Virus record (IMG/VR): IMGVR_UViG_3300033233_000190
Span: 1-20,449 of that record
Length of the DNA: 20,449 bases
Source: a virus
Direction: 5' to 3' (one strand)
Made by a program: the position numbers and the translations under genes. The notes under the pieces are model-generated. The model was not told the origin of the DNA. It saw nothing but the letters and a program-made list of their open reading frames with translations, and did not search any database. Below, one piece after another: positions 13,663-20,449 of the stretch. Within the stretch, counting starts at the first letter, position 1. Each line of letters begins with the position of its first letter.

Positions 13663-14670
13663 ATGGCAAACTTCGGCGATTTCTTTTTAAGGGGAGCAAA
13701 TTCTACCTTCCCACAAACTTTTGGAAGAACATTTCAGTTTGGTTTAGACCAACAGGAAGAACAACGCAAAAGAAATGAGTTATTAAAGGCACAACAGGAA
13801 CAGCAGGGGATAATGTCTCAAATCATAGGCGGGCAAAAAGTTACGGGAGCAAGTTATAGAGGACAATACGCGCCCTTAGATGTTCAAACAGCCCCGATGA
13901 CGACAGAGGATAAATTCAATCTTTATTCCCGTTTATCCCCGACAAATCAGAATGCCATTGAATATTATAATAAACTAACTGCACCGAAACAAGTTAAATA
14001 CAAAGAATGGAATGGAAATCAATATTTAGAAAATCCCGATGGAAGTGTTGACTGGACAAAACCAGTAGCAGAAAAGCCCGATACTCAAACATCTTTTGAA
14101 GTTGTAAAAGCTAATACAATAAAAGGATATGAAAATTATCCAAACGACTATACAGTTCAATTAACGAAGAAAAATAATGAAATTGTTGGACAATCAGTTC
14201 CTCATACATTCAAACAACAAAAGATAAATATTGAGACAGGCGAGAAAGAGGATAAATTAGACCCTATTGCAAAAAGTTTTTTAGAAGATAAAGTAAAGGA
14301 ACTTAATGGATTAAGAGGATTACTTTCTCACGCCCCAGATGATAATGGTAAATATAAAATTTATGATAAACTCGGTCAACCAGTAGCTTATTACACACCA
14401 GATGAGGTACGGAAAGCAATTGATAATAAGAACGCTGAATTAGACAACTATTTGAAATCTAACGGCGGGCAAGCAATGGATGATTATAGCTACTACAAAG
14501 AACATCTTGGAGGTAAACCAGAATCGTTATGGGGAACAATTTACAAGAATTATATAAAAGATAAGAATGACAAAAAAGATGGCGTTTGGCTTCAGACACA
14601 AAGGTTTGCTTTTATTAAAGATTATGGATTTGATCCAACTATGAAATATGATTTAGGGAAAATAAAATAA
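13663..14670 (+). CDS. Candidate internal virion/ejection protein (335 residues)
   Basis: I take ATG 13663, which has AAGGAT about seven bases upstream and gives MANFGDFFLRGANSTFPQTF; a longer in-frame GTG at 13621 would overlap the previous gene and add unlikely sequence. Residues 1-60 include a Gln/Glu-rich helix (LDQQEEQRKRNELLKAQQEQ) suited to a coiled coil. The middle is polar and partly beta (KYKEWNGNQYLENPDGSVDW), and the C-terminal third is charged, with a conserved-looking YYKEHLGGKPESLWGTIYKN. Its stop overlaps the start of the 1627-residue protein (TAATG). The position between two likely ejection proteins suggests packaging inside the capsid; no catalytic motif was seen. Confidence 0.65.
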   Translation: MANFGDFFLRGANSTFPQTFGRTFQFGLDQQEEQRKRNELLKAQQEQQGIMSQIIGGQKVTGASYRGQYAPLDVQTAPMTTEDKFNLYSRLSPTNQNAIEYYNKLTAPKQVKYKEWNGNQYLENPDGSVDWTKPVAEKPDTQTSFEVVKANTIKGYENYPNDYTVQLTKKNNEIVGQSVPHTFKQQKINIETGEKEDKLDPIAKSFLEDKVKELNGLRGLLSHAPDDNGKYKIYDKLGQPVAYYTPDEVRKAIDNKNAELDNYLKSNGGQAMDDYSYYKEHLGGKPESLWGTIYKNYIKDKNDKKDGVWLQTQRFAFIKDYGFDPTMKYDLGKIK

Positions 14671-17600
14671 TGGGAAAACAGAGACCCAAAAACGAATTTT
14701 ATTATGCTCCATCAGAGTTCCCTGATGGTAGCGCTTTGGAAAATAAAAAGCGTAAAGATGAATTTTATTATGCCCCATCTGAATTTCCTGATAGTAGTGC
14801 TTTGGAAAATAAAAAGCGTAAAGATGAAATTTATTATGCTCCATCAGAGTTCACGAGTGATGGAGTTCCTATAAATCAGCCGGTAGCTTCACCGGTAGTT
14901 CCGCCACCTGTTACACGGATGAGTAATATACAACAACCTAAAACTTCTATATTAGAGGGGATATGGAAAGGATTTACTTCTCCTATAATTAAAGCTTATA
15001 ATGAAGTTAGTTTAGGAGGCAGAGAGTTAGGTCAAGGTCTTCATCGAGGAATAAGAAACCCAACTGGAGACCTAAATAAACAGTTAAGCGGAGTAATTGA
15101 TATTTTAGGCGGTGGTTTGCAATCGGTAATGCTTCCATTCACTGCCCTATTTGGTGCTGCCACTGGTGGGTTAAAAGAATCTACTCCTTTAGACAAAAAA
15201 GTTGCTAAAGGTTTAGAACAAACGATGAACCTACCTTTTGAAGCAATAAAACAAGCTTCGGAATTAGTTAAAAAAGGTTTTGATACGATAGGATTGCCTT
15301 TACCTGAGGATAATGATGTAAGCAAAAAAATAAATAATTTAATTACCGAAGTTGGTGGTTTGCTCCTTATGGGCAAGGGTCATCGTGAAGCAATGAAATA
15401 TATAGATAAAGTTTTACCCGAAATTAAACAAGTTAAACCACTTGAGATGCCGAAAGAAGTTGCCCCAGAAGTAAAGCCAACTAAACAAACGAAGGTAGAA
15501 ACCCCAGAGGTAAAGCAACCAAACGATATTAAGCAAACCTTAAATGTTGGCGATATAGGATTAGACAAATTAACTGACTTAAATCCAGAGGTTAAAGCTC
15601 CGGAGGTTAAAACGCCAGAGGCGAAACCACTTGAGACACCGAAAGAAGTTGCACCAGAAGTAAAACCGGTAACACCAGAGACTAAAAGCGAAATAGATAA
15701 AATGTTCGGTGAAACAACGGTAGAATTAAAAAATGTAGAAAATAATACTTTTTATCACGGTACTTCAAAAGAAAGTGCTGAAAAGTTAACATCCGGCAAC
15801 CGTTCTGGATTAAAACGTGATAAAATTTTTATATCCCCATTCAAAGATTATGCAGAACAATTTGGCAAGACAATAGTCGAAATGACCCCTAACAAGGAGT
15901 TAAAGGTTGCTAATGGTTGGAAAGTTAATAATATATATTTCCGAAAAGAACATAACATAAAAAATGATGCCGAACTTTACCAATATCTTAAAAAAGAAGG
16001 TTATGACGCCGTTGCACTGGATAATGATAAAATAGAAATAATAAACTACGATGCTTTTAATATAAAAGGACAACCTCCTAAGAGCGAGGCGAAACCACTT
16101 GAGACACCTAAAGAAGTTGCCCCAGAAGTAAAACCTGTAACACCAGAGACTAAGATTAAGAAAGAAACGACAGAATGGCAAGATAGGGGTTTTTACGAAG
16201 TTAAAAACACTGGCAAAGGCACTCAAATTAGACGAGGATATGAAGTAAGCGTAAATGTAAAGGGATTGACTAAAGAACAACAAAAAAACACAAGGATTGC
16301 CCCCACAGAAAATTATATGGGTGGAATTAGGACAAAAGTACACGGGAAAACACCCGAACAAGCCATTGCCAGAGCAAAAGAGCTATATGGAGAAAAGGCA
16401 ATTATAAGTAAACCCAAATATTACGAAGAAGAGGTCGGAGGAGTTGGCGGGAAAATAATGACAATGGAAGAAGCGTTTCCCAATCGCTTCGAGAAAGGTA
16501 CAGAGAAACCTGCTGAGACTACACCAACGGTAGAAACGCCAGAAGTAAAACCAATTGAACAACCAACAACTAACGAGGTACAAAATGCCACTCAAAAAGG
16601 GAAAATCCCAGAAAACAATATCGAGCAACGTCTCCAAACTGATAAAGGAGGGCTACCCCCAGAAACAGGCAGTAGCAATAGCATACTCCAAAGCGGGAAA
16701 GAAGAAAAAGTAAATCAAGGGACTGGTGAGACTAAAGTAAGGGGATTGTCTAAAACTACCGAAATTAAAGCGATTGAATCTGATATAGTTGAAGGCATAA
16801 AGAACTTGCCTGATTATGAAGTATTGAAAAACGACCCACAGATTAAAACCGCTTCTAATATGATTGCGAATGATTTTGAGAGAGCTAAAAGAATTGCATT
16901 AGGACAAGAAGAAGCACCAAGTGATTTATTGCCCGGATTTGTTTATAAAGGATTAGAATCTTATGCTATAAAGAACAAGGACATTAATCTAATCAAAGAA
17001 CTTGCTACTTCGTCTTATTTATCAGAACAAGCAACAAGGGCAGGACAATTTGTACAATCTCTTAGAGGACAAGACCCCTATTCACCAGTAAAAGCAGTTA
17101 AAGATATTATAGAAACCCAAAATAAAACTCCGAGAGCTAAAAAATTAACAGAACTTGAACAACAAATTAAAACTCTGGAAGATAAAATAAAAAATCTTGA
17201 ATCCGATAGGGCACTTAAAAAAGCGCAAAGGGAGATAAGAAAAGAGAAAAGAAGTTATACAAAAGAACAGTTAAAAACAGAACGAAGCGATTTATACGCA
17301 CAATTATACCAAGAAACTGCAAATCTTAATGCCGGAGTTCCTTTAAGTGGCAAAGCAGTTAAGATAATGGGGCAATTATTAAAAAATTATGCAGAAGAAG
17401 GTATAACTAATGCTGCGGAAATAGTTGATGCTATCTACACAGAAGTAAGCGATAAAATTAAAGGGATAACAAAAGAAGATATTAGAAATGCACTTTCTGG
17501 ATATGGCAAAGAAGTTACAAAAACCAGAGATGAACTAACTAAACAAGTTGCTGACCTTAGAAAACAAATGGTGCTTATCTCTAAGATTGAAGATTTACAG

Positions 17601-19553
17601 TCAGGCAAATTGCCACAAAAAAGAACTATAAATAAAACTACTCCAAGTGAAGAATTACAGGCACTGAAAGAACAACTTAAAAATGAATTAAAAAATTTAG
17701 GTATTACAGAACAGGAAACTTTAAGTAAATCAAAAACAGCAATACGGAATAGAATAAAAGAGATTGACGATAAAATTAACAGAGGCGAATTTACTAAACC
17801 AACGAAAAAATTACCGCCAACTGATATAGAAAAGCAGAGATTAGAGGCAGAATTAAAGGACAAAAGAGATAGATGGAATAATATTCAAAAATATTTAGGA
17901 GAAGCGATTACTGATAAGGAAATTAAACAAATTGTTGACTTATCTAAAAACATTGAAGATACAAAAATAAAAGTAGAAAATTCGATAAGAAGTGAACTGA
18001 ACGAACCCAAGACACCAGAAGAAATGGCTTGGGGATTGGCACAGCGTTATTTTAATAAATATATAGCAAATCTTAAGCATAGGGCGGGGAAAATAACATT
18101 AGATGATTTTAAGAGTTCTCCGATAAAGACTACAGGCGAGATACTTAAGGCATCGTTAAATGCTTCTAAAAGTATGGTATCTGCATTTGATGATAGTTTT
18201 ATAGGGAGACAAGGTTTAAGGGCTTTATTTACAAGCGATGTTCCCGATTTTATTACAGCTATTCCAAGAAGAATTTTAAGTAATACGAGGTTTGAAACTA
18301 ATCCCGAAATTCCCAGATATATTTGGAGCAAATCTTTAGGTAAATCTTTAAGTATTATTGGGAATACACTTAAGGGTAAAGGTGTTGAAATAATGGATGT
18401 TTTAGCTGCTGAACAGTTAGCAGACAAATACTATCCAATAATGCAAAAGATGAAAGTTGCTTTATCAACAGCAGAGGAAGCATTCCCAACCGATATACAA
18501 TTTATTGACAAAGTACCATTGGTTGGCAAGGGATATAGAGCAAGTGAATACGCTTTTACTGGGACTGCACATTATATGAGATATAAATTAGCACAGAAAT
18601 ATATTGCAATAATGAAGGCGACAGGCGTTGACCTAACTGACAAGGTACAATTAGAAGCCGTTGGGCAAATGATTAACTCTCTTACGGCAAGAGGAAACAC
18701 TGGTGGAAGCCAGAAACCCGGATTAGTCAATGCTATTATCTGGTCGCCTAAAATGATAATGGGTCATATTAATGTTTTAACAGACCCTCTTATAGGGAAA
18801 ACCTCGTTTGTAAGAAAACAAGCAGGTTATAATCTATTAAAAATAATGGGCGGTATTGTCTCAATCCAAGCAATTGCTAACGCAGTAAAACCCGGTTCAG
18901 CAGAAACGAATCCTTTAAGTAGTGATTGGGGGAAAATTAAAGTTGGAAATACAACCTTTGATTATACTGGCGGATTGGGTGGCATCGTAACTTTAGCGGC
19001 ACGATTATCGCCTTTGCTTATAGGCAAGCCCCCAATGTATAAAGATAGGGCTACTGGTGAGATAAAAGAAATAAACACTGGCGAATATGGGTCAATGAAT
19101 GGGATGGATTTGCTTTATAATTTCCTTGAAAACAAGACATCCCCATTTGCAGGAGAAGTGGTAGCTCATCTTAAGGGAGAAACCAGAGATAAACAAAGAC
19201 CCACAGTCCCAAAAAGTTTAATGAATATGTATGTCCCATTTCCAGCGAAGACGGGAAATGAGTTATTAAGTGATCCTAATTCTGCAAACTTTATAGCAAG
19301 TATGATATTAGATTCTTTTGGATTTTCAAGTAATACATACTCAAACGATCCCGATTTGATAAAAGTAAAAAACACTTTATTAAGAGCAGATAAAGAAAAA
19401 ATGTATGGGAAATCGGTAGCTTCTTTTAATCTATCATTAGAAAAAGCACTTGAAAATGGAAGTATAACAAAAGAACAATATGATGAATACATTAAGCAAT
19501 TTGAAGAATTACAACAAAAAGCACCAGAGAAACAACCAAAAGGAGAGAAATAA
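14670..19553 (+). CDS. Giant internal virion (polyvalent-like) protein with an ART-like domain
   Basis: This 1627-residue protein is the largest product and the likely main ejection protein. In order: three tandem YYAPSEF repeats (9-61); a segment with hydrophobic Gly-rich stretches (about 100-250); a Pro/Glu/Val/Lys linker; an ADP-ribosyltransferase-like domain (about 355-468); linker; an unrecognised module (about 500-610); linker; a helical domain with the [19 protein letters not shown] motif (about 700-815); coiled coils (822-870, 945-1110); and a long C-terminal region (about 1112-1560) with [15 protein letters not shown] and [20 protein letters not shown]. The last parts resemble conserved regions of large phage polyvalent proteins. 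Hydrophobic segments near 1388-1406 and 1434-1452 could aid membrane passage. Domain names come from pattern memory, not from a search. Confidence 0.8.
14694..14852 (+). repeat. Tandem 66-base repeats encoding a 22-residue motif
   Basis: Units at 14694-14759 and 14760-14825 and a partial third from 14826 encode (D)[22 protein letters not shown] 30-base block, beginning GCTTTGGAAAATAAAAAGCG and continuing through the unit boundary, is identical between units one and two. A 21-base stretch of the YYAPSEF part is identical between units one and three, giving a mosaic pattern expected of recombination between copies. Confidence 0.85.
15438..16154 (+). repeat. Near-identical linker repeats flanking the ART-like domain
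   Basis: Bases 15618-15686 and 16086-16154 match at 65 of 69 positions. All four differences are third-position synonymous changes, and both encode [20 protein letters not shown] plus ETK. A partial third copy at 15438-15479 encodes [14 protein letters not shown]. The two full copies bracket bases 15687-16085, which hold the ART-like domain. Confidence 0.9.
15732..16073 (+). other. ADP-ribosyltransferase-like domain within the giant protein
   Basis: Residues about 355-468 show the order expected of an H-Y-E type ART fold: [15 protein letters not shown] (H363 in strand 1), [20 protein letters not shown] (S389/Y394 region), and [20 protein letters not shown] with E456 before the last strand. 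Many ART domains carried in phage and conjugative-element polyvalent proteins have the same YHGTS start and 'GYDxI...E.I.F' ending. If active, it would use NAD+ to modify a host target after injection. The assignment is by eye. Confidence 0.62.
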
Positions 19554-19931
19554 ATGAAAACACTATTTGCAATCTTAATCTTTTCTGTATCGGTATTCGC
19601 ACAGGATTGGGTTACAGCAACAATAGATTCTAACGGAACGACTTCAAGTGTAATTACGTTAGGATATTTGCATCCAATTGCAGTTACGGTTGATACCCCG
19701 TGGACTACTGCAAACCTAAATGTTCAGGTTTACGATGCAAAAATAGGGGCATACAGAACATTGAAAGGAGATGACGGGAATGCTGTCGTCTTAACCATCA
19801 CAAGTCCACCTGCTACTTATAGATTCAAACCAATAGATGCGTGGGCTATTAGTGATAAGTTTAAATTAGTCTCAACACAGACGCAGGCAAAGAAAAGAAC
19901 TCTAAAAATTAAACGTGGAAAATTAGAATGA
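19554..19931 (+). CDS. Exported-looking small beta-sandwich protein
   Basis: The 125-residue product has a clear Sec-type signal peptide: K2, a hydrophobic core (about 4-14) and a likely cleavage after VFA (residues 14-16), leaving a Q-D-W N-terminus. The mature part is beta-rich (TATIDSNGTTSSVITLGYLH, PWTTANLNVQVYDAKIGAYR, LTITSPPATYRFKPIDAWAI). It resembles a small domain common in phage structural operons, where serine/threonine-rich strands precede 'WTTA.L.VQVyd...G.y..L'. That domain normally lacks a signal peptide. The start follows AAAGGAGAG. The gene is coupled by ATGA to the tailspike gene, which also has a signal peptide, suggesting that the two are a functional pair. Role unknown. 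Confidence 0.72.
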   Translation: MKTLFAILIFSVSVFAQDWVTATIDSNGTTSSVITLGYLHPIAVTVDTPWTTANLNVQVYDAKIGAYRTLKGDDGNAVVLTITSPPATYRFKPIDAWAISDKFKLVSTQTQAKKRTLKIKRGKLE

Positions 19932-20449
19932 AAAAACTAATCTTAATAGTTCTTTTCCCATTCTTAATCTACTCACAGACACTACAAAAGTCTTGGAGAG
20001 ATTACCAAAGGATGGTATTAGATGTTTTAAGAGATTCAGTTGAGATTGTAACGCCTGAAAAGTTTGGTGCAAAGGGAGACGGAGTTACCGATGATGCAAC
20101 TGCGATTTATAATACACTGTACCTTAATAAAGGGAAGACTATATTATTTTCAGGACAGTATAAAATATACTCACAGGTGCATATAGACTTACAGGGAGAA
20201 AGTATATCTTTAGTATTCGACCCTGATGCGAAGATAACATCTACATCTCAATCGAGTTATGGAAATACTTACTATCCAGATGCTTTATTCAGGATTACGA
20301 ATGGTAAAAGAGTAATAATAAGTGGGTTGCAAATAGAAACTAAAAAAACTGGTGTTTTACCCGGGCTGAACTATAACTTAAATTATATAAACACGCAAGA
20401 TGATACTGCTAATTTTTTATGTGCTTTTAAGATAGACAGTACAGAAGAA
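19928..20449 (+). CDS. Pectate-lyase-fold tailspike with signal peptide, 3' end beyond the window
   Basis: The frame from ATG 19928 stays open to the window end (174 codons visible). Residues 1-16 are a signal peptide (MKKLILIVLFPFLIYS, then Q). A short helical stretch (SWRDYQRMVLDVLRDSVE) is followed by TPEKFGAKGDGVTDDATAIY (42-61), the hallmark of the pectate-lyase-3 parallel beta-helix found in phage tailspikes that bind or cut surface polysaccharide. The next strands (KTILFSGQYKIYSQVHIDLQ, LFRITNGKRVIISGLQIETK) fit successive beta-helix rungs. The start overlaps the previous stop as ATGA. An exported polysaccharide depolymerase or a host-derived secreted enzyme are alternatives to a virion spike; catalytic residues would lie in the missing part. 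Confidence 0.85.
   Translation, partial: MKKLILIVLFPFLIYSQTLQKSWRDYQRMVLDVLRDSVEIVTPEKFGAKGDGVTDDATAIYNTLYLNKGKTILFSGQYKIYSQVHIDLQGESISLVFDPDAKITSTSQSSYGNTYYPDALFRITNGKRVIISGLQIETKKTGVLPGLNYNLNYINTQDDTANFLCAFKIDSTEE

What the first reader, a model, noticed from the sequence alone, without database searches (positions are those of the whole stretch)
19554..20449. Two consecutive virion-operon genes with Sec signal peptides, including a tailspike
Both products start with textbook signal peptides (..SVFA-Q and ..FLIYS-Q) and are coupled by ATGA. Cytoplasmic phage assembly does not normally use exported subunits; P22-like tailspikes have no signal peptide. Either the spike and its small partner are secreted by infected or lysogenic cells (free depolymerase, surface alteration, superinfection exclusion), or they were captured from a host secreted-protein locus. 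The -Q after cleavage suggests a Bacteroidota/Ignavibacteriota-type host.
Basis: partly seen in the sequence, partly recalled or inferred. Interest (0 to 1): 0.6.

Follow-up and report, generated by a model that had tools for sequence, protein, structure and literature searches.

The report
Exported tail proteins of a podovirus
The last two virion genes of this phage fragment make a small tail protein and a tailspike that both start with a secretion signal; relatives do the same, and in isolated marine phages proteins with such signals are recorded as parts of the virus particle, which is unexpected because tailed phages are thought to be built entirely inside the cell.

Summary
ORFs 19554-19931 and 19928-end, the last two genes of a podovirus virion operon, start with textbook Sec signal peptides (SPs) with Q at +1, joined by ATGA; none of the other 17 genes has one. 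It is not chance: in related genomes G001, G005 and G018, 5-7 distal virion genes carry such leaders. In the four genomes 22 of 93 genes are SP+ (82% with A/G/S/C^Q), against 1-3% (0-17%) in other loci. Relatives G007 and G019 lack them.

Decisive point: four Cellulophaga phage isolates (phi19:1, phi18:3, phi10:1, phi39:1) have 12 distal tail proteins with rule-conformant SPs, all Q+1, that GenBank notes as found in virions by MS/MS. No portal, capsid or tape-measure protein checked has one. So 'secreted instead of virion' is disfavoured. The best reading is virion tail proteins exported by Sec, trimmed to a Gln N-terminus, and joined to tails outside the cytoplasm. Export, cleavage and late joining are inferred.

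Shine-Dalgarno motifs, absent from Bacteroidota phages tested, plus Q+1 suggest an Ignavibacteriota-like host, unproven. No paper in the held library describes this. The spike's 3' part is missing.

The parts
14670..19553 (+). 1627-aa internal (ejected-type) virion protein just upstream; positional anchor for comparing genomes; no SP
   Evidence: relative in G001 28% identical overall, up to 41% in segments
19540..19545 (+). AAGGAG ribosome-binding site of the first SP gene
   Evidence: Direct reading; Shine-Dalgarno enrichment in this clade
19554..19931 (+). 125-aa small, probably beta-sandwich, tail protein with SP
   Evidence: SP+ small proteins at the same place in G001 (156 aa), G005 (143 aa) and G018 (at least 199 aa); all-beta low-confidence model, best matches small Caudovirales proteins
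19554..19601 (+). Signal peptide MKTLFAILIFSVSVFA, predicted cleavage before Q17
   Evidence: Rule scan
19928..19931 (+). ATGA overlap coupling the two SP genes
   Evidence: Direct reading
19928..20449 (+). Tailspike with SP, N-terminal 174 aa only (3' end of contig)
   Evidence: PHROG tail/tail spike hits 8e-9 and 6e-8; N-terminus conserved with G001 645-aa protein
19928..19975 (+). Signal peptide MKKLILIVLFPFLIYS, predicted cleavage before Q17
   Evidence: Rule scan
20051..20122 (+). Start of the beta-helix part (TPEKFGAKGDGVTDDATAIYNTLY, typical of phage spikes)
   Evidence: PHROG/Pfam alignments start at residues 28-48

Best explanation
The two genes encode distal tail proteins of a podovirus: a small tail protein and a beta-helix tailspike. 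Their leaders are functional Sec signal peptides adapted to a host that follows the Q-rule. During late infection the subunits are exported across the inner membrane, the leader is cut and the new N-terminal Gln probably cyclised to pyroglutamate; they fold and trimerise in the periplasm and attach to cytoplasmically built heads and tail stubs outside the cytoplasm, most likely when the inner membrane fails at lysis. Shown: the leaders, their specificity to distal or accessory virion genes, their conservation in relatives, and that other Q+1 SP-bearing tail proteins are recorded as virion components in isolates. Inferred: export, cleavage, cyclisation, place and time of joining, and that this phage behaves like those isolates.
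For: Only the last two of 19 window genes have SPs. Five distal genes in G001, seven virion genes in G005 and six in G018 have them; 22 of 93 genes, 18 with A/G/S/C^Q (one gene counted twice through overlapping loci), against 9/939 and 29/1010 in other loci. Q at +1 only matters after cleavage, which argues for a cut leader. None of the SP+ proteins scanned shows a type IX secretion sorting domain above cut-off, so the periplasm is the likely end point.
Against: No experiment on this phage or its host. MS/MS notes cover particle preparations and could include co-purified secreted proteins; they do not report N-termini. The SP+ Cellulophaga proteins are not sequence homologues of the window's proteins. 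Some relatives (G007, G019) and some Cellulophaga phages (phi18:1, phi46:1, the phi4:1 spikes) manage without leaders. No exported tail fibre of a tailed phage is known to me.
Confidence: 0.6

Rival explanations
1. The hydrophobic N-terminus is not cut: it stays on the protein as a short helix that anchors the spike and its partner in the tail or tethers tail assembly to the inner membrane.
For: The leader belongs to a conserved N-terminus where spikes usually carry the virion-attachment part; cytoplasmic assembly would need no new step.
Against: The detail fits SPase I substrates: basic n-region, short h-region, small residue at -1 and Q at +1 in most cases across unrelated gene families and phage families. 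An uncut anchor has no reason to keep Q there.
Confidence: 0.15
2. The proteins are mainly secreted, non-virion factors: a free depolymerase and partner that loosen the host coat, alter the surface or block reabsorption of progeny.
For: SPs; carbohydrate-active folds: beta-helix and weak LamG/CBM hits in relatives, a pectate-lyase-like domain in phi39:1 gp26. A 1010-aa SP+ protein in G005 ends in a hydrophobic stretch plus RRRKA, like a membrane anchor.
Against: Counterparts in four isolates are recorded as MS/MS-detected virion proteins. Position in the tail operon; PHROG tail families.
Confidence: 0.15
3. Dual use: one pool is assembled into virions and a second pool stays in the periplasm or on the surface, for example to stop progeny from binding debris.
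For: Compatible with all data here; would explain why mainly receptor-facing proteins carry leaders in most genomes.
Against: No direct evidence for a second pool.
Confidence: 0.08
4. Annotation artefact: translation really starts downstream of the leader.
For: An ATG at 20012 exists in the spike frame.
Against: Leader conserved between window and G001; good ribosome-binding site for the first gene; same pattern in many genomes; the 20012 ATG lacks a proper spacer.
Confidence: 0.02

Closest known systems
Distal tail proteins of Cellulophaga phages phi19:1 and phi10:1 (Assiduviridae), phi18:3 (Pachyviridae) and phi39:1
   Same: Operon-end tail/fibre/pectate-lyase genes with Sec SPs and Q at +1; recorded as MS/MS-detected virion proteins
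   Different: Different phage families and host; no sequence homology of the SP proteins found; no Shine-Dalgarno enrichment in most
P22-like podovirus tailspikes and pectate-lyase-fold phage spikes (PHROG 17312, 14558)
   Same: Beta-helix start motif, P22-like portal, place at the end of the virion operon
   Different: Standard spikes start directly with the attachment domain and have no signal peptide (established knowledge)
Filamentous phage coat proteins (Inoviridae)
   Same: Virion proteins made with signal peptides (established knowledge)
   Different: Those are membrane proteins of virions extruded through the envelope; these are soluble tail proteins of a tailed, presumably lytic phage
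Porphyromonas gingivalis 'Nixviridae' Q-rule SP genes (PMC10367356)
   Same: Phage genes with Q-rule SPs
   Different: There the five genes have unknown function and were read as host-surface modifiers, not virion parts

Membership tests
Podovirus tailspike (pectate-lyase fold) | Beta-helix N-terminal motif shared with phage spikes | tested here: met
   PHROG tail 8e-9, tail spike 6e-8
Podovirus tailspike (pectate-lyase fold) | Full beta-helix, catalytic residues and trimerisation domain | not testable with these tools
   Contig ends at 20449; no close relative of the spike was found to hold the rest
Podovirus tailspike (pectate-lyase fold) | No signal peptide; starts with the attachment domain | tested here: not met
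   Leader before the attachment region; this departure is the finding
Sec/SPase I substrate of a Q-rule host | n-, h- and c-region with small -1 residue and Q at +1 | tested here: met
Sec/SPase I substrate of a Q-rule host | Leader cleaved in vivo, N-terminal pyroglutamate | not testable with these tools
   Needs N-terminal proteomics
Exported virion proteins as in Cellulophaga phages | Protein present in purified particles | not testable with these tools
   Recorded for Cellulophaga proteins, not for this uncultured phage
Type IX secretion cargo | C-terminal sorting domain | tested here: inconclusive
   None found in the G001, G005, G018 or Cellulophaga SP+ proteins scanned; the window spike's C-terminus is missing

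The most novel reading that the evidence does not exclude
Some tailed phages of FCB-type bacteria build their virions in two compartments: heads in the cytoplasm, distal tail parts in the periplasm, joined at lysis. In one contig (G014) even the head-tail adaptor and the presumed tail hub carry signal peptides, so the whole tail may be made outside the cytoplasm.
Probability: 0.35. Interest if true: 0.88.

Novelty: new variant of a known kind. Interest (0 to 1): 0.72.

Why it matters
Tailed-phage assembly is taught as wholly cytoplasmic. Signal peptides restricted to distal tail proteins, in several unrelated phage groups, with counterparts recorded in virions of culturable isolates, mean either that part of the tail is made in another compartment or that a leader can be reused as a tail part. 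Either would be new, and Cellulophaga phages in culture make it testable now. It also matters for expressing such spikes and for host prediction (Q at +1 plus Shine-Dalgarno use).

Tried and rejected
Direct searches for relatives of either SP protein in IMG/VR and phage records found none for the small protein and only distant spike matches; relatives came through the terminase, the internal virion protein and the capsid protein. The host search through the capsid protein in prokaryote genomes gave one 3.3-kb contig in a Dojkabacteria MAG, probably misbinned, so no host. Sequence homology between the post-IVP small proteins of window, G001 and G005 is not significant; they correspond by position and leader only. 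Weak similarity of G001's 156-aa SP protein to an SP-less head-side protein (2e-5 single comparison; z 7.2) is suggestive only. The AlphaFold model of the small protein is low confidence (pLDDT 58), so its fold matches are a hint. Type IX secretion was considered and dropped for lack of a sorting domain. Literature searches found no description of exported tail proteins; subscription journals, including the 2013 Cellulophaga phage paper, are mostly not held. Flavobacterium phage 11b showed no SP tail genes by the rule. The query contained 36 residues not taken from any record (my error); that call is not used as evidence.

Full report
What is there. The window is a linear IMG/VR fragment of 20449 bases carrying a podovirus virion operon: terminase 1381, P22-like portal 3063, SU10-type capsid protein 5903, two SU10-adaptor-like proteins 8045 and 8650, a hub-like protein 9579, a 1627-aa internal virion protein (IVP) 14670-19553, then the two genes of the finding. 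Both start with signal peptides: MKTLFAILIFSVSVFA^QDW and MKKLILIVLFPFLIYS^QTL. They are joined by ATGA. The second gene is a spike cut off at the contig end (PHROG tail/tail spike).

Relatives. Terminase, IVP and capsid searches gave a small clade. G001 (terminase 72%, capsid 79%): among the genes after the IVP five have SP-like starts, of which the rule flags four. The second matches the window spike over leader plus about 24 residues, and the rest of the protein differs, as in modular spikes. G005 (capsid 55%) has seven SP+ virion genes: a duplicated pair near the capsid gene (45% identical), three between adaptor and hub, and two after the IVP. G018 (capsid 43%) has six, all with Q at +1. 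G007 and G019, at a similar distance, have none at the places visible. In the four SP-rich genomes 22 of 93 genes are SP+ (one gene counted twice through overlapping loci), 18 with A/G/S/C^Q; in other terminase relatives 9 of 939 (1 with Q), in other IVP relatives 29 of 1010 (5 with Q) (eight IVP loci that already looked SP-rich were left out of that background). The leaders are therefore a clade feature, specific to accessory and distal virion genes, and vary between relatives.

Are such proteins in virions? GenBank records of Cellulophaga baltica phages state which proteins were found by MS/MS. In phi19:1 gp101-103, phi18:3 gp85-87, phi10:1 gp91-94 and phi39:1 gp25-26 the annotated proteins have SPs by the rule, each with a Q+1 site, and all are MS/MS-supported (records; N-termini); phi19:1 gp104 also looks like one by eye. 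They are the last tail genes before lysis genes: pectate lyases, tail fibres and unnamed structural proteins. MS/MS-supported tape measure, portal, capsid, adaptor and other tail proteins checked in these phages have no SP. Phages phi18:1 and phi46:1 have none, and phi4:1's spikes have none (one short phi4:1 protein, gp57, has a membrane-anchor-like start). Thus tailed phages with SP-bearing virion proteins exist in culture. These proteins are not sequence homologues of the window's; the link is by kind of gene, position and leader.

Host. Q at +1 is typical of Bacteroidetes, and Ignavibacterium album also has a Q-value of 77% (PMC5837995). The window clade has Shine-Dalgarno-like motifs upstream of 45-90% of genes, against 5-20% at random places; most Cellulophaga and Bacteroides phages tested sit at or near the random level. 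Q-rule plus Shine-Dalgarno points away from Bacteroidota proper, to something like Ignavibacteriota. No host was found directly.

How it most likely works. Sec export, leader removal, probable pyroglutamate, folding in the periplasm, and attachment to the virion outside the cytoplasm, probably when the membrane fails. Only the leaders, their distribution and the virion records of the isolates are shown; the rest is inferred. The main rivals are an uncut leader used as an anchor and a secreted non-virion role. Q at +1 argues against the first, the MS/MS records against the second. No type IX sorting domain was found above cut-off in the SP+ proteins scanned.

Odd case. In G014 a 237-aa protein with a significant SU10-adaptor match (Pfam 36.2 bits, cut-off 27) and an 895-aa protein at the hub position also start with SPs, with D or Q at +1. 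If real, core neck proteins are exported too, which is hard to square with sealing a packaged head in the cytoplasm. It is one contig and was not followed further.

Literature. Phage Q-rule genes of unknown function are noted for Porphyromonas gingivalis phages (PMC10367356). The North Sea flavophage paper does not mention signal peptides (PMC8776804). No paper found describes exported tail proteins, within an open-access library that lacks most subscription journals.

Verdict. Observation confirmed; interpretation partly supported; interest high because the question is now testable with cultured phages.

Noticed in passing
L143 3236-3949 and 3928-6615 (same as L208 11850-12563 and 9184-11871, minus strand): In contig G014 a head-tail adaptor (Pfam SU10_adaptor 36 bits) and the protein at the tail-hub position start with signal peptides, so even core neck proteins may be exported.
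   Followed up: partly
L206 9926-15244 (-), L144 7691-11800, L126 7545-11546, L111 13633-18033: Very large (1300-1800 aa) tail-fibre-like proteins with signal peptides lie downstream of the internal virion protein region in four other phage contigs.
   Followed up: partly
L170 9156-12188: A 1010-aa SP protein of G005 ends with a hydrophobic stretch followed by RRRKA, like a C-terminal membrane anchor with a cytoplasmic tail.
   Followed up: no
window 15753-16079: The internal virion protein has an insert ([15 protein letters not shown]..., [15 protein letters not shown]), absent from G001, that looks by eye like an ADP-ribosyltransferase-type domain in a protein presumably injected into the host cell; Pfam gave no hit.
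   Followed up: no
window 14670-14870: The N-terminus of the internal virion protein holds three near-identical repeats ([21 protein letters not shown]).
   Followed up: no
L007 19701-21797, L008 19809-21836 (PQ571277, PQ571263): Bacteroides phage genes annotated 'tail spike protein' match the window's large terminase over 94-97% of its length; the label looks like an annotation error.
   Followed up: no
L170 6392-6886 and 6897-7418: Two SP-bearing neighbours near the capsid gene of G005 are a tandem duplication (45% identical).
   Followed up: yes
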